Assembly (NCBI GenBank): GCA_023443625.1
Contig: JAEZTQ010000070.1
Location: 62,001 to 126,000 of the forward strand
Direction of reading: 5' to 3'
DNA: 64,000 nt
DNA from: Bacillota bacterium
Lineage (GTDB): Bacteria > Bacillota_A > Clostridia > Lachnospirales > Lachnospiraceae
The notes under the pieces were generated by a model. It saw only the letters and a list, made by a program, of their open reading frames with translations. It made no database searches and had not been told where the DNA came from. Shown one piece after another: positions 11,268 to 21,061 of this stretch. The translations under genes were made by a program, and so were the position numbers. Numbering within the stretch: the first letter of the stretch is position 1; every line of letters begins with the position of its first letter.

Positions 11268-11699
11268 TCAATTCTTCATATTATCTTGTATTCCATCCTC
11301 TTTCTTAACCATAATACTCTTCCTATACTCTCCAGGTGTTATTCCTTCACTCTTTTTAAATGCACGGCTTAAACTATTGGCACAATTATATCCTACTTTA
11401 ACCGCAATACATTCAATTGATTGGTAGGGATCTTCCAGATACTCTTTTGCCTTTGTTATTCTTAACTTTTCTAAATAACCAGTAAAATTATAACCAGAAT
11501 ATTTTTTAGAAAAATGACTAAAGTTAGAATAAGATGCCCCTCCGGTTAAGCCTTTAGTAGAATCAAATTTACGAAAAGCCAATTGCAGACCATACATTGG
11601 AACATAATTGAATAACAAAATAATTATTAATGCAGGTAAAATCATTAAATATAACTGGTAATTTTTTTTAATGTGCCGATAAACTTTATTTTCTTTCAC
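11268..11699 (-). pseudogene. Chimeric remnant: LplB-type sugar permease N-terminus fused to an AraC/YesN C-terminus
   Basis: The 143-codon frame is a join of two unrelated genes. Residues 1-50 (YLMILPALIIILLFNYVPMY then GLQLAFRKFDSTKGL) are the N-terminus of an LplB-type carbohydrate ABC permease, including the first membrane helix. From about residue 57 (SNFSHFSKKYSGYNFTGYLE) it is the second half of an AraC-type DNA-binding domain as found at the end of YesN response regulators (IAVKVGYNCANSLSRAFKKS, then GITPGEYRK). The junction is in frame, so an internal deletion removed the rest of both genes. It is unlikely to act as a transporter or complete regulator. It starts at GTG behind GGGAGG. 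Confidence 0.75.
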
Positions 11700-11999: not shown

Positions 12000-13997
12000 T
12001 TATATCTTACCAATGAATTCATTATGCTTATCCCCTTTTAAGAAAACAGGAATTACCTCTAGAGGTGCTTCCACCAGTACCCTTTGTCCTCCTTCATACC
12101 TGGTTCCGTCGTGTATGCTTGTCCATACTATTCCATGCGGAAGATATACTTCTCTTTCATACATATCTTCCTGGACAACTGGAGCTACTAAAATATCACT
12201 ACCAAACATGTATTGGTCTTTTAATTCCCAGCAGTTTTCATCTTGAGGGAACTCATAGAACATTGTTCGCATAATCGGACTGCTCTTTTCATGGGCTTCT
12301 TTCATAAGTTGTCTAGTATATGGACGCATGATTTCACGAAAATGTACGTACTTTTCTAGTATTTCATAGACCTCTTCACCAAAGCTCCAGATTTCGTTAG
12401 GTCCACCGCTACCCTGAATTTCTTCACCATTCTTTTTGATCACTTTTTCATATGAGATGCGGTCTCCATGAAGACGCATAACCGGGCAAAAGGTTCCGTA
12501 TTGGAACCATCGTACCAATAGCTTACGAAAGCCCTCATCCTCAGGGTCTCCTCCGGCAAAGCCACCGATATCAGTAGTCCACCAGGGAATTCCCGCGATG
12601 CCCATATTAAGCCCTGCACATATTTGGCGTCTAAAAACTTCATAGTTAGAATGTATATCGCCTGACCAAACCAAAGCACCATATCTCTGACTTCCAGCCC
12701 ACGCACAACGAACCAAATTTACTACTTGTTTTTCTCCTGCTTCTGTCATGCCATCATAAAAGGTTTTTGAAAATTGCTGTGGATAGATATTACCAATTTG
12801 CACATTAGGTCCCATATGATAGCGATAATTATCAAAATCATAGACATTATACTCCGGCTCTGCTTCATCAAGCCAAAATACTTTAATACCATAATCATAG
12901 TAATTCTTTTTACACTTTTTCCATACATAATCTCTGGCCCTTGGATTCGTTGCATCGTAGTAAACACTTTCTCCCTGAAATCTCATACTAATATTCACAC
13001 CTAGCTCCGATTTAACCAGAAGGTTATTATCCTGCATCTCTGCAAAGTTCTCACTTTTATAATCCACCTGTGGCCACACGGATACCATAAGTTCAATTCC
13101 CAGGGCTTTCAGCTCTTCCACCATGGCTTTGGGATCAGGGAAAAATTCTTCATCAAAGCGATAATCACCCATTCTGGGCCAGTGAAAGAAGTCACATACG
13201 ATTACATCAATAGGAAGGTTTCTTCTTTTATATTCTCTTGCGACCTCTAATAATTGTTCCTGATTATAGTAACGCAGTTTACATTGCCAAAATCCCAATC
13301 CATACTCAGGCATCATCGGTACTCGCCCCGTAGCTTGTCCATATGCCTCTTCTATCTCAGCCGGAGTGTCACCGGCAGTGATCCAATAGTCCATTTGTTT
13401 TGTACTCTCGGCATACCATTCCATAAAATTATTACATAAGCTAACACGACCTACTGCCGGATTATGCCATAAGAAGCCATAGCCTTTACTAGACAATATG
13501 AATGGTACACTAGCTTGAGAATTACGGTGGGCCAGTTCAAAAGTACAGTTTTTGATATTTAAGACTTCTTGCTGGTACTGACCCATACCATAGAGTTTTT
13601 CATCCTCTGTACCTTCAAAAGTGACTGTTAGTCGATGATCTCCTCCTAGGATTGGTTTATAATGTCTCGGTCTCCTATTTAATGCGCCTCCAGAATCAAC
13701 TTCACGTAATAGAATATCACCTTTCTGATTATAAAATGTAATGTTACACCCGCTGTTCCCCCAGAATTTCTTTAAAACCGCTTTTATTTTTCCATTTGTA
13801 ATACTTGCTGTCTCTTCTTCGATGTTTATGGTGGTTTTTAACATTTCACAGGGAAGCAGTGCATAGTCTGTATCCAAGACATCCTCCATCATGCGCCCTC
13901 TTACTCTGAAGCTGTTTTTGCCCCATGGCTCAATAACTAGAGTTTCTCCTCCGTGCGTCCATACTAAACGATTTTCTTCCTTCCAATAAATTCCCAT
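12000..13997 (-). CDS. Glycoside hydrolase family 31 (alpha-xylosidase/alpha-glucosidase type)
   Basis: The 665-residue protein has the GH31 layout: an N-terminal beta domain, then a (beta/alpha)8 barrel from about residue 220 (YGLGFWQCKLRYYNQEQLLEVA and PIDVIVCDFFHWPRMGDYRF). The nucleophile Asp lies in VFWLDEAEPEY near residue 375 and the general acid in LVWSGDIHSNYEVF near residue 440. A C-terminal beta domain carries IMRTMFYEFPQD. The FFHWPRMGDYRFD loop resembles alpha-xylosidases (YicI type), so xyloglucan side-chain cleavage is plausible, but specificity is not certain. There is no signal peptide, so it acts inside the cell. It is preceded by TAAGGAGG. The AraC-type gene upstream in the same direction is its likely activator. 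Confidence 0.9.
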   Translation of the reverse strand: MGIYWKEENRLVWTHGGETLVIEPWGKNSFRVRGRMMEDVLDTDYALLPCEMLKTTINIEEETASITNGKIKAVLKKFWGNSGCNITFYNQKGDILLREVDSGGALNRRPRHYKPILGGDHRLTVTFEGTEDEKLYGMGQYQQEVLNIKNCTFELAHRNSQASVPFILSSKGYGFLWHNPAVGRVSLCNNFMEWYAESTKQMDYWITAGDTPAEIEEAYGQATGRVPMMPEYGLGFWQCKLRYYNQEQLLEVAREYKRRNLPIDVIVCDFFHWPRMGDYRFDEEFFPDPKAMVEELKALGIELMVSVWPQVDYKSENFAEMQDNNLLVKSELGVNISMRFQGESVYYDATNPRARDYVWKKCKKNYYDYGIKVFWLDEAEPEYNVYDFDNYRYHMGPNVQIGNIYPQQFSKTFYDGMTEAGEKQVVNLVRCAWAGSQRYGALVWSGDIHSNYEVFRRQICAGLNMGIAGIPWWTTDIGGFAGGDPEDEGFRKLLVRWFQYGTFCPVMRLHGDRISYEKVIKKNGEEIQGSGGPNEIWSFGEEVYEILEKYVHFREIMRPYTRQLMKEAHEKSSPIMRTMFYEFPQDENCWELKDQYMFGSDILVAPVVQEDMYEREVYLPHGIVWTSIHDGTRYEGGQRVLVEAPLEVIPVFLKGDKHNEFIGKI

Positions 13998-15234: not shown

Positions 15235-15804
15235 TCATTGACCTCCGGACTCTAAACCACCTTTATTAATAAATTCCAATATGGCCAGATGAATGCCCCA
15301 GGCAAGTTTTTCTTGATATTCATTATCTTGAAGCAGTTTTGATTCTTTTACATTAGTGAGAAAACCACACTCAACAATAACCAAAGGACACTCTGATTTC
15401 CGTAACATATAGTAGGTATCATTGGACTTTGCTTGGCGGTGGTTTCCATCACCAATCGTCTCCTTTAATTGGGTTTGAATCATTTCTGCCAGCTGCTTTC
15501 CCTGAGAAGATTTCGCATGGTAAAAGACCTGGGCTCCCTTAATAGACTCTTGGGTAAAGCTGTTTTGATGGATACTGATTGCCAAATCTGTATTATTCGA
15601 TTGAATAACATTAACTCTGTGATCCATATCCGCTCTTTTTTTATTGGCTGCTGTTGTAGAATCTAGTCCTACATCCTCCTCACGGGTCATGATCACCTTA
15701 ATATCATTTAATTCCAGCAGACTCTTTAGTTTTAATGAAATACTCAGGTTAATATCCTTCTCCAATACGTTATCTATGCCGACTTTTCCCGGATCTCTCC
15801 CACC
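15235..15804 (-). CDS. cwlD: cwlD, 3' part (residues 54-242), separated from its 5' part
   Basis: This is the catalytic body of the sporulation N-acetylmuramoyl-L-alanine amidase CwlD, which helps make muramic-delta-lactam in spore cortex. Reading from the att core it encodes GGRDPGKVGIDNVLEKDINL; then SIHQNS (metal-binding His133 in the rebuilt numbering), and VIVECGFLTN with the catalytic Glu199. Glu68 in LEKDIN is the second metal ligand. It has no start codon, membrane anchor or ribosome site of its own: upstream the frame runs through the core repeat into the end of the GH2 gene and hits a TAA at about 15849. The only internal start (TTG at 15765) would omit the metal-binding His. No frameshift or stop is present in these 189 codons. 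The missing first 53 codons lie at 20845-21003. Confidence 0.9.
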   Translation of the reverse strand, partial: GGRDPGKVGIDNVLEKDINLSISLKLKSLLELNDIKVIMTREEDVGLDSTTAANKKRADMDHRVNVIQSNNTDLAISIHQNSFTQESIKGAQVFYHAKSSQGKQLAEMIQTQLKETIGDGNHRQAKSNDTYYMLRKSECPLVIVECGFLTNVKESKLLQDNEYQEKLAWGIHLAILEFINKGGLESGGQ

Positions 15805-15812
15805 ATGACCTG
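15805..15812. repeat. Left junction core of the cwlD intervening element
   Basis: ATGACCTG (CAGGTCAT in cwlD sense) occurs here and again at 20845-20852. In both halves of cwlD the reading frame through it is (C/T)CA-GGT-CAT, so the two align exactly in frame. Confidence 0.85.
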
Positions 15813-15818
15813 ATACTT

Positions 15819-18614
15819 CTATAGGAAAGGAAGATGATCCATCTCCTTCTCCGGATTAAAATCCTTGGATCCCATATACTTAAGGATGCTATATTCCAGC
15901 CATCTAGCAGGATAACTATCTTTAAGCTTTCGTAAATCACTAGTACATACTAAGAGCTTACCCTCACCCACCTTAAGCTCAAACACATTACCTAATCGAT
16001 GATTACGTTCAAAATTATCGATTGTCCATACAAGAGGCTCAAGATCAGTGCCATCTAATATGATTGCACGGGAGGCAGAAACTATATCATACCATTGGGC
16101 TGTTGAATACCTTTCTGTTGGAAATTCATCAAATAATACATGATCTTTGTCAATGAATAGGCCATGAGTTCCAATGGGTATTGCTCTACCCATACTTTCA
16201 GAAATCGTTCTAAACATTGGATAACACCAAAAATCCGTACAGTAGGTTCCTTCAATGGAGTTTGAATTATCAAGGTTTGCGGGATATAGTAAAACCTTTC
16301 TGCCCTCCTTAAGATTAAGGAGCGCTTCCTCTGTGCAGTCTGTTATTACTATGTCTCTATCTGCTATCTCTGCCACACCTTCCGGATATAGCCATATATC
16401 ATAACTATTCTTTATCTGAGTTTGGGCAAGGCCTACCTCAAGTTTTAGCTGTTGTGGTGAATCTACATAGGGCATATCAACCACTAAGTCACATAGCTTT
16501 TCAACTCCATTTTGGAATTCACCCATAACTTTATTTTCTTTTGAAAAAATAATTTTATCTTGTTTTAAGATAGTTAACTCCACTATCGGATTTATAATTA
16601 CTTCTGGTTTAAAGGAGGTTAGCTTAATACCCACATTTACACTTTCACCAGCTTTAAATACTAACCTTTCAAGCTCTGCAAGTACAACTGTGTCCCAGCA
16701 GAATTGCTTCCATTCAGAGGAAGATATTACTCCTTTCTCTTCCATGAAGGAATTTAAGACACCCACAAGCGCTGTTCCCTGACCTGAGAAATCCTGCAAG
16801 TCTAAAAGCTGGAAGCCTGCCAGTTCATTGCTTCGCATAGCAGCTTCAATCTCAGCCTTATAGCATTCTGCCGCAAATCTACCAGATGCTTTAAAAAACA
16901 AATCTGCCTTATGAAGCAGACCCTTAGCCTCTAAGCGTTTTTGAAATACCTCTAAATTTCTTGCCTTTAATACTCCCCTATACTTACTTATTTCCGTAAA
17001 ATCCGGATACATGGCATACTGGCCTACCTCATGGGATACAACAGGTACTTCTGGAATAATCTCCTGGGAAGCATCCATTTGAACTGTCTTTGTCCCCGTT
17101 TCATATTGGATGGTAATATCCCCTCCTGCTGCCTTATCTAAGGATGAATCCCCGGATAAATCCCTGGGACGTATGATCTCGTCATAATTATGTATTGTAT
17201 CCGGTGGTAGGGTTTGAATATGTCCCTGGGGGGCATCACACATGGCATAAGAACCACGGAAAAGCCTCTCCCTAGAGAAGCGTACCCCGCAGAAGAAATC
17301 TTCATTCTCTAATATGCAGGGCATAAATTGAAAATTATTTGAACCCTGAGTATATAAAGGCCTATTATCGTAAGCTCTATATCCACCCAAAATTTCATTC
17401 ACTCGGGATTTATTACCCCATAATTCATTTCCCATGGACATCATAACAAAAGAGGGGTGATTTCCAAACTCATCCAGGATCTTGAATCCTTCCTGAATTA
17501 AATATTGCTGCGCTTGTTCATCATGATTTTCCTCACCCTGAGCAGTTACTGTTCCCCAAAAGGGTAGCTCTGGCTCCATATAGATACCCAATATATCTGC
17601 GGCCCTAAAAGCTGCTTCTGGTGGACAACAGGTATGAAAACGGTAATGGTTAATACCAAATTCTTTGGCTTTTTCCATAACCTTCAACCAGCTATCCAAA
17701 TCTGTAGGAGCATGTCCCGTCATAGGGAAAATCAACCCATCATGCTTACCTCTTAGGAAGGTCCTCTGGCCATTGATTACAAAATATTTTCCCTCTGCCT
17801 TAAAATCTCTAAGCCCAAAGGAATAATTATATGTATCAATTTGGTCATCTATCCCAGTAGTGTCCCCAGCTTGAAGCTGGAGCTTTAGGGTATAAAGCTT
17901 GGGATTATGCTCACTCCATGGGATAACCCCTTCATTCAAAGTGTAGGTAAAGGTGTTTTCCCCTTCTTTAAGGGCATACTCTTCTACCCTATAAGCTTTA
18001 TCTTCATCAAATACAGTTGCTCTGACAACCAGGCTGTCTGCTCCCTTTAAGCTTGCAACTACTTTTATTTGTTTATCTACTGCACTGGGATATATTTTAA
18101 CTCCCTGTAGATACGCCTTGCTGCTGATTTCTATTTTAATCTCTCCAGTGATTCCATTCCAGTTGGTCTGAGTATCCGGCGAAGTCATATGCCCACCTTT
18201 CACCAGATAGGAAGTGTTATCGATCATTATTGTCAGCCTATGCCGTGATTTATTGATAAAAGGTGTAAGTTGATACCTATGGGAGGTACAAAGGCTATTA
18301 TTACTACCAACGTAATTATCATCTATCCATATCTTCGAAATCCTTGTTCTTTCCAGCACTAGAAAAAACTCTTTCCCCTTTGTATCTTCAAATTCTACAT
18401 CTTTTGAGTACCAGGTAAAGCCCTCAAATAAATAAGGATCTGTTAAAAAGCCCTCAAAGATTTCCTGTGAGGGAGTTCCTTTCTTTGCTGTGGATACAGT
18501 ACCAGGTAAAATAATAGTATCAGAAAATGTTTTATTATAAAATTTCTGATCCACACCTAATTTTTCTTTATCAAGGCAAAAACTCCAATTACCACTTAAA
18601 TCAATCATCTTCAT
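15819..18614 (-). CDS. Glycoside hydrolase family 2 (beta-galactosidase/glucuronidase-like), cargo of the cwlD element
   Basis: The 931-residue protein has the GH2 order: N-terminal sugar-binding jelly roll (MIDLSGNWSFCLDKEK ... WYSKDVEF, GGHMTSPDTQTNWNGITGEI), Ig-like domain, and a TIM barrel with FLRGKHDGLIFPMTGHAPTD. The acid/base Glu is in FVMMSMGNELWG and the nucleophile Glu in VVSHEVGQYAMYPDF. C-terminal beta domains follow. There is no signal peptide. I chose the start MKMIDLSG at 18614 because GGGGGTATATCT precedes it. The substrate is unknown; rhamnogalacturonan or other plant glycans fit the window. It has its own sigma-A-like promoter and ends 7 bp from the element boundary. Carriage of a large metabolic gene in such an element is unusual. 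Confidence 0.85.
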   Translation of the reverse strand: MKMIDLSGNWSFCLDKEKLGVDQKFYNKTFSDTIILPGTVSTAKKGTPSQEIFEGFLTDPYLFEGFTWYSKDVEFEDTKGKEFFLVLERTRISKIWIDDNYVGSNNSLCTSHRYQLTPFINKSRHRLTIMIDNTSYLVKGGHMTSPDTQTNWNGITGEIKIEISSKAYLQGVKIYPSAVDKQIKVVASLKGADSLVVRATVFDEDKAYRVEEYALKEGENTFTYTLNEGVIPWSEHNPKLYTLKLQLQAGDTTGIDDQIDTYNYSFGLRDFKAEGKYFVINGQRTFLRGKHDGLIFPMTGHAPTDLDSWLKVMEKAKEFGINHYRFHTCCPPEAAFRAADILGIYMEPELPFWGTVTAQGEENHDEQAQQYLIQEGFKILDEFGNHPSFVMMSMGNELWGNKSRVNEILGGYRAYDNRPLYTQGSNNFQFMPCILENEDFFCGVRFSRERLFRGSYAMCDAPQGHIQTLPPDTIHNYDEIIRPRDLSGDSSLDKAAGGDITIQYETGTKTVQMDASQEIIPEVPVVSHEVGQYAMYPDFTEISKYRGVLKARNLEVFQKRLEAKGLLHKADLFFKASGRFAAECYKAEIEAAMRSNELAGFQLLDLQDFSGQGTALVGVLNSFMEEKGVISSSEWKQFCWDTVVLAELERLVFKAGESVNVGIKLTSFKPEVIINPIVELTILKQDKIIFSKENKVMGEFQNGVEKLCDLVVDMPYVDSPQQLKLEVGLAQTQIKNSYDIWLYPEGVAEIADRDIVITDCTEEALLNLKEGRKVLLYPANLDNSNSIEGTYCTDFWCYPMFRTISESMGRAIPIGTHGLFIDKDHVLFDEFPTERYSTAQWYDIVSASRAIILDGTDLEPLVWTIDNFERNHRLGNVFELKVGEGKLLVCTSDLRKLKDSYPARWLEYSILKYMGSKDFNPEKEMDHLPFL

Positions 18615-18664
18615 AGATATACCCCCAAATATAATTATTGTCATTCAATATGTACTCACCATTG

Positions 18665-18693
18665 ATTATATAATTCTATAAATAGTAAATCAA
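18665..18693 (-). promoter_or_regulatory. Sigma-A-like promoter of the GH2 gene
   Basis: On the minus strand TTGATT (18688-18693) and TATAAT (18665-18670) are separated by exactly 17 bases, about 50 bases upstream of the GH2 start. This suggests the cargo gene is expressed in vegetative cells, independently of the recombinase. Confidence 0.65.
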
Positions 18694-18707
18694 TGTGATA
18701 TATTGTA

Positions 18708-20399
18708 CTATTGATTGTTATTCTCTAAAATCGATGTTAGTTCCTTGGAGAACTTATAATTAATTTGGACTTTGTTATCATGATAAATATAGATGCAATC
18801 TACGGCTTCATAAACCATTTCCCTTGTTAACTTATCCACAGGTCTGCTTTTTACCAAGGCTTTTATCCACTTATTCGAGAAGATATCCCTATCCTTCTTT
18901 AGCTTAGCCTCCAACCTATGAATTTCACTATTGAGATTTTCACACTCTGATTCATATCGGTATTTCAGTTCCTCATATTTTCCATCCCTTAGCTTACCAA
19001 GTAACCACTTGTCTTCCACTCCACTCAAAAGTGCCTGCTGCATCTTTAATTTTTCTCTTTTTTGCTTAATATTAGCTCTAAGAAATTTCTTATTGCTATT
19101 ATTAAGATCAGATAATTTATATTTCTCTACAACCTTCTCTATGTCAGAAGCCGTAGCTAGAATTGTATTTAAGTCCTTTAGGATAATATCTGAGAGGGTA
19201 TTATAATAAATTCGGTTTGTATAGCATTTAGAGACATCCTTTTTATGAAGGCGACAATGGTAGCTAAGGTATACCTTGTCTTTATATTTTTCTCTATGCT
19301 TAATTAATGCATGTAAACAATCTCCGCATTTTAATATACCAGTAAAAACATTTAAATCATCCTTCATATTATCTTTTTTATTATCAACTATGTTTTCACT
19401 TTTATTTCTATTCCTTACAACACTGTTTCGCAATTGCTGTACTGCGTCAAATTCCTCTTTGCTAATGATTGCCTCATGCATGTCAGGTACTCTAATCCAT
19501 TGTTCCCTAGCTATCCTTTCAATTTCCTTTGCTTTAAAATCTTTGGTAGCAGTTTTATGTTGTACCATAGTACCAGTATACTTTTCGTCTTGAAGAATTC
19601 GATTAATAGTATCCCCAGTCCAGCAGGAATTCCCATGGATATAATTTGAACATTTGTAGTTATAGCCCTTTTTATTTTTATATACATAAGGCGGGTCAAT
19701 TCCTTTGTTATTCATCCGTCTAGCAATCTCTGCTGTGCCTAACCCTTCCTTTAAACTCAGTCGAAAGATTTCTTTTACATGATCAGAGACTTCAAGATCA
19801 ATAAGGAGATGATGCTTGTCTTTGGGATCTTTCCTATATCCATAGGGAGCAAAGGCTCCTATAAATTTCCCTGCTCTCATCATACTTTCCATTCCTGTTG
19901 TCACTTTATGACTCTGACTCCTTGAATACTCCTCGTTTAAAAACAGTAGTATTCGTACCCCGATATCTGGTTTATCTGTTAAACTATCATAATGATCTGC
20001 ATAGGCAACAAACCTAATTTGCTTACCTTTTATCTCAAAATCCTTCTCTAAATATTCAATTATTCTAATATAGTCTCTTCCAAAACGAGAGAAATCCTTT
20101 ACGATAATGCAGTCGATGTTTCCCGCCTCCACTTCCTTCATCATCTCTTGAAAATTTGGTCTATCAAAGGTAATGCCCGTATAATCATCGTCATAATACT
20201 CACCAAAGATTTTCACAGGTATGGCATGCTCCTCTTTATTTAACTGACTTACAGTATAATGGAGATAATCCCGCTGGTTCTTAATGGATTCACTATCCAT
20301 GTATTTATTTACCTTACCTCGGTCTTCATCCGAAAGTCTTCCGTATAATCCTGCCATAAAGGAATCCTTACTAACCTTATTTGTTGGTTTAAATCTCAT
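18708..20399 (-). CDS. Large serine recombinase of the cwlD element
   Basis: The 563-residue protein has the large serine integrase layout. A resolvase catalytic domain spans residues about 13-160 (AGLYGRLSDEDRG with the nucleophile Ser, FSRFGRDYIRIIEYLE, RFVAYADHYDS). A recombinase domain covers about 185-300 (APYGYRKDP, GTAEIARRMNNKGIDPP, TGDTINRILQDEKYTGTM). A zinc ribbon lies around 355-400 (LKCGDCLHALIKH ... YHCRLHKKDVSKCYTNRI, four Cys) and a coiled-coil near 435-510. Such enzymes integrate DNA at short unlike att sites and need a directionality factor to excise. It lies 446 bp from the right att core, typical of these elements. GAGGTAGCAGG precedes the ATG, 15 bp after the small ORF. 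Confidence 0.93.
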   Translation of the reverse strand: MRFKPTNKVSKDSFMAGLYGRLSDEDRGKVNKYMDSESIKNQRDYLHYTVSQLNKEEHAIPVKIFGEYYDDDYTGITFDRPNFQEMMKEVEAGNIDCIIVKDFSRFGRDYIRIIEYLEKDFEIKGKQIRFVAYADHYDSLTDKPDIGVRILLFLNEEYSRSQSHKVTTGMESMMRAGKFIGAFAPYGYRKDPKDKHHLLIDLEVSDHVKEIFRLSLKEGLGTAEIARRMNNKGIDPPYVYKNKKGYNYKCSNYIHGNSCWTGDTINRILQDEKYTGTMVQHKTATKDFKAKEIERIAREQWIRVPDMHEAIISKEEFDAVQQLRNSVVRNRNKSENIVDNKKDNMKDDLNVFTGILKCGDCLHALIKHREKYKDKVYLSYHCRLHKKDVSKCYTNRIYYNTLSDIILKDLNTILATASDIEKVVEKYKLSDLNNSNKKFLRANIKQKREKLKMQQALLSGVEDKWLLGKLRDGKYEELKYRYESECENLNSEIHRLEAKLKKDRDIFSNKWIKALVKSRPVDKLTREMVYEAVDCIYIYHDNKVQINYKFSKELTSILENNNQ

Positions 20400-20414
20400 C
20401 CTGCTACCTCATGC

Positions 20415-20552
20415 CTAATTACTTTCCTTATCCAGATATGCCTTGATTACTTTTGCTACAAATTCATCAACAGTGAGATCTCCCTTACAATTACGTATCA
20501 CCACAAACTGCTTTCCCTTTTTCCTTCCATACTTTTCCCCTTTTTGATTCAT
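20415..20552 (-). CDS. 45-residue basic protein upstream of the recombinase
   Basis: An ATG at 20552, seven bases after AGGGG, opens a 45-codon frame: MNQKGEKYGRKKGKQFVVIR then NCKGDLTVDEFVAKVIKAYL and a short tail. It begins strongly basic and ends in a predicted amphipathic helix. It stops 15 bp before the recombinase start, so translation may be coupled. I do not recognise a family. Small basic proteins next to serine recombinases can act as recombination directionality factors, so it is a candidate for that role; this is inference from position and charge only. Confidence 0.55.
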   Translation of the reverse strand: MNQKGEKYGRKKGKQFVVIRNCKGDLTVDEFVAKVIKAYLDKESN

Positions 20553-20579
20553 GACCCAACCCCTGGAATGCCTTCTATA

Positions 20580-20760
20580 CCTTCTTAATTCATATTACGA
20601 AAATTCCTATTGACATATGCCTTTCTTTTAACGATTGCTCTATTTTCCCTTCTTAATTTTTTTATTAATATTCCTTTCATTAACTTTATAAAATTTCCTT
20701 TTATTTAATTTTCCTTTTATTAAATTTTCTATGATAAGGATTAGATAACTATATAATAAA
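20580..20760. other. A-rich leader with short direct repeats inside the element
   Basis: On the minus strand this region repeats TAAAAGGAAAATT-like units at least three times (AATAAAAGGAAAATT, AATAAAAGGAAATTT, AATGAAAGGAATATT). It contains the promoter of the small ORF and recombinase, which I could not assign to a sigma factor. A CATAGAAA at about 20730 matches the sigma-E -10 in 7 of 8 positions, but no convincing -35 accompanies it. Confidence 0.4.
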
Positions 20761-20824
20761 GGAAGAGGCTATTGCAAAAGGGTACACTACTTAATAGTAA
20801 GCGTATTTTGCAATAGCCTCTTCC
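20761..20824 (-). terminator. Strong terminator just inside the right end of the cwlD element
   Basis: A perfect 19-bp stem (GGAAGAGGCTATTGCAAAA and its complement) is followed on the minus strand by TTTATTATAT. The stop codon of the truncated cwlD frame falls in the loop. It would end transcription entering from the cwlD promoter while the element is in place, and be removed on excision. Confidence 0.75.
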
Positions 20825-21003
20825 TGTCTTAACCAGGTACGAGGATGACCTGGATCAATTACAATTACAATTGGTTTTTTATTTGTATCTACTTCATTGG
20901 TAAAGAACATACTCTTCATTACATTAACAGCTTTCTGTGAGGTTAATGTAACAGCTAAAAAAACAAATACTATAAATACGAGACTGAAATATTTTTTCTT
21001 CAT
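20791..21003 (-). CDS. cwlD: cwlD, 5' part (codons 1-53) plus 17 element-derived codons
   Basis: The frame opens with MKKKYFSLVFIVFVFLAVTL, the membrane-anchoring or signal segment typical of CwlD, and continues to KKPIVIVIDPGH, which is the start of the amidase-3 catalytic domain with metal-binding His53. Directly after the att core the frame enters the element and reads 17 foreign residues (PRTWLRQEEAIAKYAYY) before a stop. As it stands the product is inactive. Joined at the core to 15235-15804 it gives a complete CwlD. The upstream neighbour is a GH18 protein of the cortex-lytic type, so the context is sporulation or germination. Confidence 0.88.
   Translation of the reverse strand: MKKKYFSLVFIVFVFLAVTLTSQKAVNVMKSMFFTNEVDTNKKPIVIVIDPGHPRTWLRQEEAIAKYAYY
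20845..20852. repeat. Right junction core of the cwlD intervening element
   Basis: A second copy of ATGACCTG (CAGGTCAT in cwlD sense), spanning Pro51-His53 of the 5' cwlD half. On the element side the sequence continues CCTCGTACCTGGTTAAG in cwlD sense, the right arm of the inferred attP. Confidence 0.85.
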
Positions 21004-21033
21004 TCTATCCGTCCAAAATTCATATTCCCTAAA

Positions 21034-21061
21034 TATTATGAAGAAATCTTATGTCCTATAC
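21034..21061 (-). promoter_or_regulatory. Sigma-G/F-like promoter of cwlD
   Basis: On the minus strand GTATA (21057-21061) and CATAATA (21034-21040) are 16 bases apart, 30 bases before the cwlD start codon. They resemble the sigma-G -35 and -10 (about GHATR and CATNHTA). Bacillus cwlD is sporulation-controlled, so the match is plausible. AT-rich DNA makes chance matches common. Confidence 0.4.

What the first reader, a model, noticed from the sequence alone, without database searches (positions are those of the whole stretch)
15235..21003. Sporulation gene cwlD is split by a 5-kb serine-recombinase element whose excision would rebuild it exactly
The first 53 codons of cwlD (21003 to 20845) and the last 189 (15804 to 15235) are separated by 5,040 bp containing a large serine recombinase. 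Both junctions carry the same 8 bp (CAGGTCAT in cwlD sense) in the same codon phase. Fusing them restores a 242-residue amidase with the unbroken Asp-Pro-Gly-His-Gly-Gly motif, metal ligands His53, Glu68, His133 and catalytic Glu199. Neither half has a stop or frameshift. Established precedent: skin elements in sigK and other intervening elements in sporulation genes are excised by serine recombinases during sporulation. Inference: this is a developmental switch for spore cortex maturation. I know of no described element in cwlD.
Basis: partly seen in the sequence, partly recalled or inferred. Interest (0 to 1): 0.96.

Follow-up and report, generated by a model that had tools for sequence, protein, structure and literature searches.

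The report
Excisable element splitting a spore gene
A 5-kb DNA element carrying its own serine recombinase splits the spore-cortex gene cwlD exactly at its active-site codons, and would likely be cut out during spore formation to rebuild the gene, as is also predicted for related recombinases found in other split spore genes of related bacteria.

Summary
cwlD lies in two clean in-frame pieces separated by 5,040 bp, with CAGGTCAT in the same codon phase at both junctions. Joined, they give a 242-aa CwlD without signs of decay: 4 of 87 invariant columns deviate, against 0-7 for 14 intact homologues. The insert holds a 45-aa ORF, an intact large serine recombinase and a family-2 glycosidase.

It is not a one-off. 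Among 397 Lachnospiraceae genomes, 9 of about 250 with a listed CwlD match have a cwlD 3' half cut at the same GHGG codons; both halves were read in 4 of the 9. A census by recombinase gave 26; 22 lie in or beside cut spore genes: pdaB 11, a CwlC-like amidase 6, cwlD 4, spoVAD 1.

Best reading: a skin-like element excised in the sporulating mother cell. Target choice and intact halves support this; excision itself is untested. Against it: one probable forespore target, recombinase-less inserts in one genus, weak promoter evidence, no excised form seen, host genome not held. New variant of a known kind.

The parts
20845..21003 (-). 5' half of cwlD (53 codons, from the start to DPGH)
   Evidence: open frame runs on to 20791; aligned with intact homologues
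20845..20852 (-). core repeat CAGGTCAT at the 5' junction
20761..20824 (.). 19-nt perfect inverted repeat with a T-rich tail just inside the element, terminator-like
   Evidence: coordinates; not scored with a terminator tool
20415..20552 (-). 45-aa ORF directly upstream of the recombinase, candidate recombination directionality factor
   Evidence: no Pfam hit and only an insignificant PHROG hit; similar small ORFs in the same place in related elements
18708..20399 (-). large serine recombinase, 563 aa
   Evidence: PF00239, PF07508, PF13408; nearest solved chains TnpX and SPbeta YokA; N-terminal serine motif invariant in 12 aligned sequences
15819..18644 (-). cargo: family-2 glycoside hydrolase, 941 aa
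   Evidence: NCBIfam matches all below cut-off; best an exo-beta-1,4-galactosidase model
15805..15812 (-). core repeat CAGGTCAT at the 3' junction
15235..15804 (-). 3' half of cwlD (189 codons, Amidase_3 domain from Gly54 on)
   Evidence: PF01520 4.9e-43, TIGR02883 3e-56
21033..21061 (-). sigma-E-like promoter upstream of cwlD (GTATAGG-N14-CATAATAT)
   Evidence: p about 0.07 against resampled sequence; weak; consensus recalled
20592..20620 (-). sigma-E-like promoter upstream of the 45-aa ORF (GCATATG-N14-CGTAATAT)
   Evidence: p about 0.15; weak on its own

Best explanation
[quoted passage not shown] Shown: the two in-frame halves, the identical core at both junctions, a full-length recombinase inside, and the same arrangement in other genomes. 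Inferred: the recombinase, helped by the 45-aa ORF as directionality factor, recombines the two cores; this happens during sporulation under sigma-E-type control; the forespore chromosome keeps the element, so the next generation is split again. CwlD then removes stem peptides from muramic acid so that PdaA can make muramic-delta-lactam, which germination enzymes need. The element thereby keeps the amidase off in vegetative cells, and it persists because it sits in a gene used only in a cell that dies.
For: Junctions and frame. No decay: 4 of 87 columns invariant in the other 14 sequences deviate, against 0-7 for each intact homologue left out in turn. Canonical locus, with kinase, p214 and GH18 genes upstream as in G258 and others. 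Recurrence: 9 cut cwlD among about 250 genomes with a listed match (149 by my count, 79, 22; read), plus G562 and G566 from genus searches. Target bias in a census by recombinase: 22 of 26 in or beside cut spore genes; window lineage 2 of 2 in the same 397 genomes, both in cwlD. In the 14 loci where both halves were read (cwlD 6, pdaB 5, CwlC-like 3) they lie in order, on one strand and in the same codon phase. In one genus all 3 held genomes are cut (read); between two of them the 3' half has dN 0.15 with saturated dS near 2.35. PdaA-like protein over the full profile in 8 of 9 cut genomes, one over the curated cut-off. Mother-cell expression of these genes elsewhere: PMC6021603 (passages), PMC517825 (passages).
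Against: No excision product seen: the best full-length homologue of the fused protein is 71%, and the only 100% match is a 151-aa protein of the window's own 3' half. The host genome is not held, and some relatives have two cwlD genes. One census recombinase sits against spoVAD, a forespore gene in B. subtilis (recalled), which does not fit mother-cell-only excision. Three cwlD inserts in one genus showed no recombinase. G476 has lost the GHGG frame at its junction. Promoter matches in the window are weak. In 5 of the 9 cut cwlD only the 3' half was seen, and G180 shows only a recombinase fragment there. G031 and G156 carry conjugation-type genes upstream (by eye), as an ordinary mobile element would. 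4 of 26 census recombinases do not lie by a recognised spore gene. The yardstick for one search is imperfect: a neighbouring YitT gene is more constrained (0.022) than the cwlD 3' half (0.064), and the cargo somewhat less (0.103).
Confidence: 0.78

Rival explanations
1. Safe-harbour insertion: ordinary integrative elements whose recombinases favour conserved motifs in genes not needed for growth; they excise rarely and without developmental control, leaving hosts impaired in cortex formation.
For: Two split loci carry conjugation-type genes (by eye). Diverse serine integrases are known to share one conserved coding-sequence target (PMC10083194, passages). Four census recombinases are not by a recognised spore gene. 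In the tree the cwlD label changes at least 5 times, as with repeated arrivals.
Against: It does not explain by itself why targets of unrelated sequence (GHGG codons of amidases, AAWG codons of pdaB) are nearly all spore peptidoglycan genes, though avoidance of harm could contribute. Nor does it explain a whole held genus cut (3 of 3) with both halves still open and constrained, or the lack of decay in the window.
Confidence: 0.16
2. A dead cwlD: the insertion inactivated this copy and another intact cwlD or amidase does the work.
For: G349, G551, G557, G558, G559 and G561 carry two cwlD-level genes; in G349 the second lies next to a pdaA-like gene (coordinates). The window's whole genome is not held.
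Against: The split copy is the syntenic one and shows no decay. At E <= 1e-33 six cut genomes (G031, G036, G109, G146, G156, G400) show a single CwlD match, the cut one; G115 likewise at 1e-30.
Confidence: 0.05
3. Assembly artefact: two unrelated contigs joined at an 8-bp repeat.
For: No whole genome is held for the window; it may be a metagenome-derived record.
Against: The identical recombinase occurs on 3 contigs. Both halves belong to one gene at a conserved locus and fit in phase, and the same architecture recurs in other genomes.
Confidence: 0.01

Closest known systems
skin elements in sigK (B. subtilis, C. difficile)
   Same: serine recombinase inside an insert that splits a mother-cell sporulation gene; precise excision rebuilds the frame; small directionality factor (CD1234, 72 aa, sigma-E and SpoIIID controlled; PMC5025042, abstract and passages)
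   Different: target is a cortex amidase, not a sigma factor; insert is 5 kb with no recognised phage genes and a glycosidase cargo; excision not shown here
gin element in gerE (B. cereus ATCC10987)
   Same: non-phage element with serine recombinase and separate directionality factor, 9-bp shared core, in-frame rebuilding (PMC5595907, abstract, introduction and discussion)
   Different: 28.6 kb with three recombinases, other target gene, other bacterial class
yin element in yabG (C. botulinum), vfbin in spoVFB, SPbeta in spsM
   Same: other sporulation genes split by excisable elements (PMC10747680, passages; PMC4191935, search listings)
   Different: each described as one element in one gene in the passages I saw; here related recombinases hit several spore peptidoglycan genes across a family
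TnpX/TndX-type recombinases of clostridial transposons
   Same: nearest solved chain is TnpX; the small upstream ORF resembles TnpW (recalled)
   Different: no conjugation or mobilisation genes recognised in the window element; the recombinases are tied to a few target genes

Membership tests
skin-like sporulation gene-intervening element | splits a sporulation gene with a short repeat at both junctions | tested here: met
skin-like sporulation gene-intervening element | joining at the repeat restores an uninterrupted, conserved reading frame | tested here: met
   in silico:
skin-like sporulation gene-intervening element | encodes an intact large serine recombinase | tested here: met
   full length with all domains by sequence; activity untested
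skin-like sporulation gene-intervening element | encodes a directionality factor | tested here: inconclusive
   45-aa ORF; a small-ORF motif was found upstream of 16 of 25 related recombinases, window not among the 25; function untested
skin-like sporulation gene-intervening element | sporulation-specific expression of recombinase or directionality factor | tested here: inconclusive
   sigma-E-like sites: window cwlD p 0.07, 45-aa ORF p 0.15; G115 small ORF p 0.003, G115 cwlD 0 of 300
skin-like sporulation gene-intervening element | excision observed in the sporulating mother cell | not testable with these tools
   no reads or cultures; no excised-form protein listed
integrative conjugative or mobilisable element | conjugation or mobilisation genes | tested here: not met
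   only three ORFs of note in the window insert, none conjugative
prophage | phage structural or replication genes | tested here: not met
   on all three ORFs, on two of them: recombinase and glycosidase matches only
CwlD amidase (TIGR02883) | zinc ligands and catalytic Glu conserved in the joined product | tested here: met
   His53, Glu68, His132, Glu198 in invariant columns of 15 sequences; their roles recalled

The most novel reading that the evidence does not exclude
Lachnospiraceae carry a whole lineage of serine-recombinase elements specialised in splitting spore peptidoglycan genes (cwlD, pdaB, CwlC-like amidases), so that cortex making and mother-cell lysis are switched on by cutting DNA in the doomed mother cell. 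In one genus a recombinase housed in one split gene would serve a second, recombinase-less split gene in trans.
Probability: 0.55. Interest if true: 0.93.

Novelty: new variant of a known kind. Interest (0 to 1): 0.86.

Why it matters
In the papers I saw, only a handful of sporulation genes are named as rebuilt by DNA excision (sigK, spsM, spoVFB, gerE, yabG), each with its own element. Here related recombinases appear to have settled again and again in spore peptidoglycan genes of a major anaerobe family. If true, DNA excision is a common control layer of spore cortex formation there. Genome annotation would be miscalling working spore genes as broken, and predictions of who can sporulate would be wrong. 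The junctions, compact recombinases and candidate directionality factors also form a testable toolkit.

Tried and rejected
One crossover dinucleotide for all elements: I first took CA as common to all; the lineages differ (window and G115 share GGTCAT; clade II junctions read in three genes share TGG), so I dropped it. The genome-contig scan with the recombinase gave only 7 distant relatives, 29-32%. Viral contigs: the 80 loci kept of 119 with related recombinases showed no cwlD half; 5 loci with CwlD relatives were not pursued. Phage records: 305 with matches, all under 60% identity; 8 rows seen. dN/dS for the window was not attempted, as the nearest intact cwlD is too far; the one pair tested has saturated dS. 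Sigma-K-type promoters: no better than chance in the window. G041 (short frame) is intact; G099 is cut by a contig end. G373, G392 and G394 (short or truncated matches) were not examined, so 9 is a minimum. G465 (216 aa) is intact. G017: an intact Amidase_3 gene lies by one of its three recombinases; the other two copies were not examined. L051 (G061) was left out at first and then resolved as pdaB.

Full report
What is there. On the minus strand cwlD begins at 21003 and runs 53 codons to ...Ile-Asp-Pro-Gly-His (20845). The rest, 189 codons, lies at 15804-15235. The 8 bp CAGGTCAT stand at both junctions in the same codon phase, 5,040 bp apart, and occur nowhere else in the window. The 3' half is CwlD (TIGR02883, 3e-56) and PF01520. 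The join gives 242 aa with His53, Glu68, His132 and Glu198 in invariant columns and matches the C. difficile CwlD chain 7rag_B. Of 87 columns invariant in 14 intact homologues, 4 deviate; each intact homologue left out in turn deviates at 0-7. So neither half shows decay.

The insert. From the 5' junction it holds a 19-nt inverted repeat with a T-rich tail, a 45-aa ORF, a 563-aa large serine recombinase with all three domains, and a 941-aa GH2 glycosidase that ends a few bases before the 3' junction. No phage or conjugation gene was recognised. The upstream genes (kinase, p214, GH18) are those found upstream of cwlD in relatives, so this is the canonical cwlD.

Recurrence in cwlD. In 397 genomes drawn from the family of a Blautia-titled genome, CwlD matches down to E 1e-33 were listed for about 250 genomes (149 by my count, 79, 22; the centre genome itself, frame 266, is not in that count). 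Open frames are mostly 230-290 aa; short ones flagged candidates. Nine have a 3' half that begins at the GHGG codons: G115, G036, G109 and G400, with both halves read, and G278, G180, G031, G146 and G156, with the 3' half only, beside a recombinase (in G180 a fragment at the contig end). G562 (both halves) and G566 (3' half; an element like that of G115, same genus) came from genus searches. None of the 15 genomes at the head (G349, G549, G028, G550-G561) shows a short frame. Insert lengths, His codon to His codon: window 5,040, G115 3,092, G036 1,904 (little more than a recombinase), G109 6,584, G400 3,059, G562 1,960. G031 and G156 carry conjugation-type genes upstream, by eye. G476 has a 28% recombinase beside a 3' half whose GHGG frame is lost.

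Two recombinase lineages. A tree of 47 recombinases puts the window with G115, G566, G278 and 21 proteins of unknown context (P0002-P0022) in one clade (100/100); all four placed members are in cwlD, though G115 and G566 are congeners with the same kind of element. A second clade (100/99) holds G036, G146, G156, G031 and five others first labelled 'other'. Those five turned out to lie in pdaB (G030, G033, G020) and in a gene with Amidase_3 and SPOR domains (G145, G127), an architecture I recall from B. subtilis CwlC. The cwlD label needs 6 changes on the tree, at least 5 forced by starred branches, and 9 of 500 shuffles are as low: targeting was repeated, not one ancestral event.

Census by recombinase. 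Searching the same 397 genomes with the G031 recombinase at 1e-120 gave 26 matches, one per genome (at most 3 candidates per genome were scored, so misses are possible). Flanks show pdaB fragments at 11 (G033, G020, G030, G389, G371, G174, G061, G268, G111, G349, G086), the CwlC-like gene at 6 (G145, G127, G109, G229, G400, G202), cwlD at 4 (G031, G156, G146, G036) and spoVAD at 1 (G288; 2e-57; other half not found in the 12 kb fetched). Most lie directly against the recombinase or within about 1.5 kb of it; in G127 the 3' half is about 2.9 kb away and in G086 both halves are 4-5 kb away. Both halves were read for pdaB in G030, G033, G020, G111, G086 and for the CwlC-like gene in G127, G109, G202. 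In G389 and G174 only a 5' half was seen, and in G389 the usual Trp codon at the junction is changed. Four are elsewhere or unresolved: G180 (C14), G286, G099, G236. The query came from a cwlD insert, so the census samples that subfamily; but pdaB shares no motif with cwlD at the junction beyond TGG. The window recombinase at 1e-88 found 2 of 397, both in cwlD. An earlier search with it (295 genomes, 19 recombinases) had 10 in these genes (cwlD 4, pdaB 4, CwlC-like 2). The other 9 fall outside the two clades where placed on the tree; for seven of them the stretch downstream was read and no spore-gene fragment was recognised by eye.

Conservation of the split state. In the genus of G400 all 3 held genomes are cut, and G109, G400 and G562 share a secreted-esterase-like cargo. 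Between G109 and G400 the 3' half has dN 0.15 with dS saturated near 2.35 (ratio 0.064); the 5' half is 70% identical with dS not estimable; for comparison the neighbouring YitT gene gives 0.022 and the cargo 0.103. I recognised no recombinase in these three inserts. The same genomes carry one elsewhere, in G109 and G400 at the CwlC-like gene. The left end of the G562 cwlD insert resembles that of the G109 CwlC-like insert (by eye). Excision in trans is my inference.

Mechanism. Shown: anatomy, recurrence, target bias. Inferred: excision by the recombinase with a small directionality factor. A motif for such a small ORF was found upstream of 16 of 25 related recombinases; the window's 45-aa ORF resembles them by eye but has no significant family hit. 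Sigma-E-like promoters are weak in the window (p 0.07 and 0.15) and better in G115 (0.003 and 0 of 300, scores from a recalled consensus). C. difficile cwlD is controlled by mother-cell sigma-E, and spores lacking CwlD are germination-defective for want of muramic-delta-lactam (PMC6021603, passages). PMC517825 (passages) lists cwlD as sigma-E controlled and repressed by SpoIIID, SpoIIID binding upstream of ybaN (pdaB), and GerE control of cwlC in the terminal phase. In B. subtilis cwlD is also transcribed in the forespore (PMC6021603, same passages). A PdaA-like protein spans the full profile in 8 of 9 cut genomes, all but G278, with one over the curated cut-off. A gene needed only in a cell that dies is where excision costs nothing; spoVAD, a forespore gene in B. 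subtilis (recalled), is the exception.

Known kin. Published elements lie in sigK, spsM, spoVFB, gerE and yabG (PMC10747680, passages; PMC5595907, abstract, introduction and discussion). In C. difficile skin the directionality factor CD1234 is sigma-E and SpoIIID controlled (PMC5025042, abstract and passages). Searches for cwlD or pdaB with recombinase or element terms listed no paper that I recognised as describing an element in these genes; only open-licence papers are held, and most were seen as listings. Verdict: a new variant of the skin-like kind, well supported as anatomy, untested as a switch.

Noticed in passing
L224:9800-10219 (G288): A recombinase of the same lineage ends a few bases before the C-terminal part of spoVAD; SpoVA genes are forespore genes in B. 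subtilis (recalled), so excision there would not fit the mother-cell rule.
   Followed up: partly
L160 (G400), insert in cwlD: The recombinase-less insert encodes a protein with a Spo0A C-terminal DNA-binding domain (PF08769, 1.7e-20) and an HTH-like protein (by eye), possible regulators tied to sporulation.
   Followed up: no
L065 (G349:C1:1901963): A second cwlD copy lies next to a pdaA-like gene; G551, G557, G558, G559 and G561 also have two cwlD-level genes.
   Followed up: partly
L073 (G146): Genes upstream of the recombinase look like a signal peptidase, sortase and surface-protein set, so this element may carry a pilus-like cargo (by eye).
   Followed up: no
L061 (G115) and L166 (G566): The inserts carry a PIN-domain-like protein with a small partner, an addiction-like pair beside the split gene (by eye).
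   Followed up: no
window 11268-11699: A 143-aa ORF resembles only the start of a sugar ABC permease and may be a truncated gene (by eye).
   Followed up: no
L068 (G170): A GH31 gene 53% identical to the window's GH31 (12000-13997) lies between GH18 and cwlD, so glycosidase genes come and go around this locus.
   Followed up: no
L167 (G476:C31): A more distant recombinase (28%) lies against a cwlD 3' half whose GHGG codons no longer fit in frame, perhaps a decayed split.
   Followed up: partly
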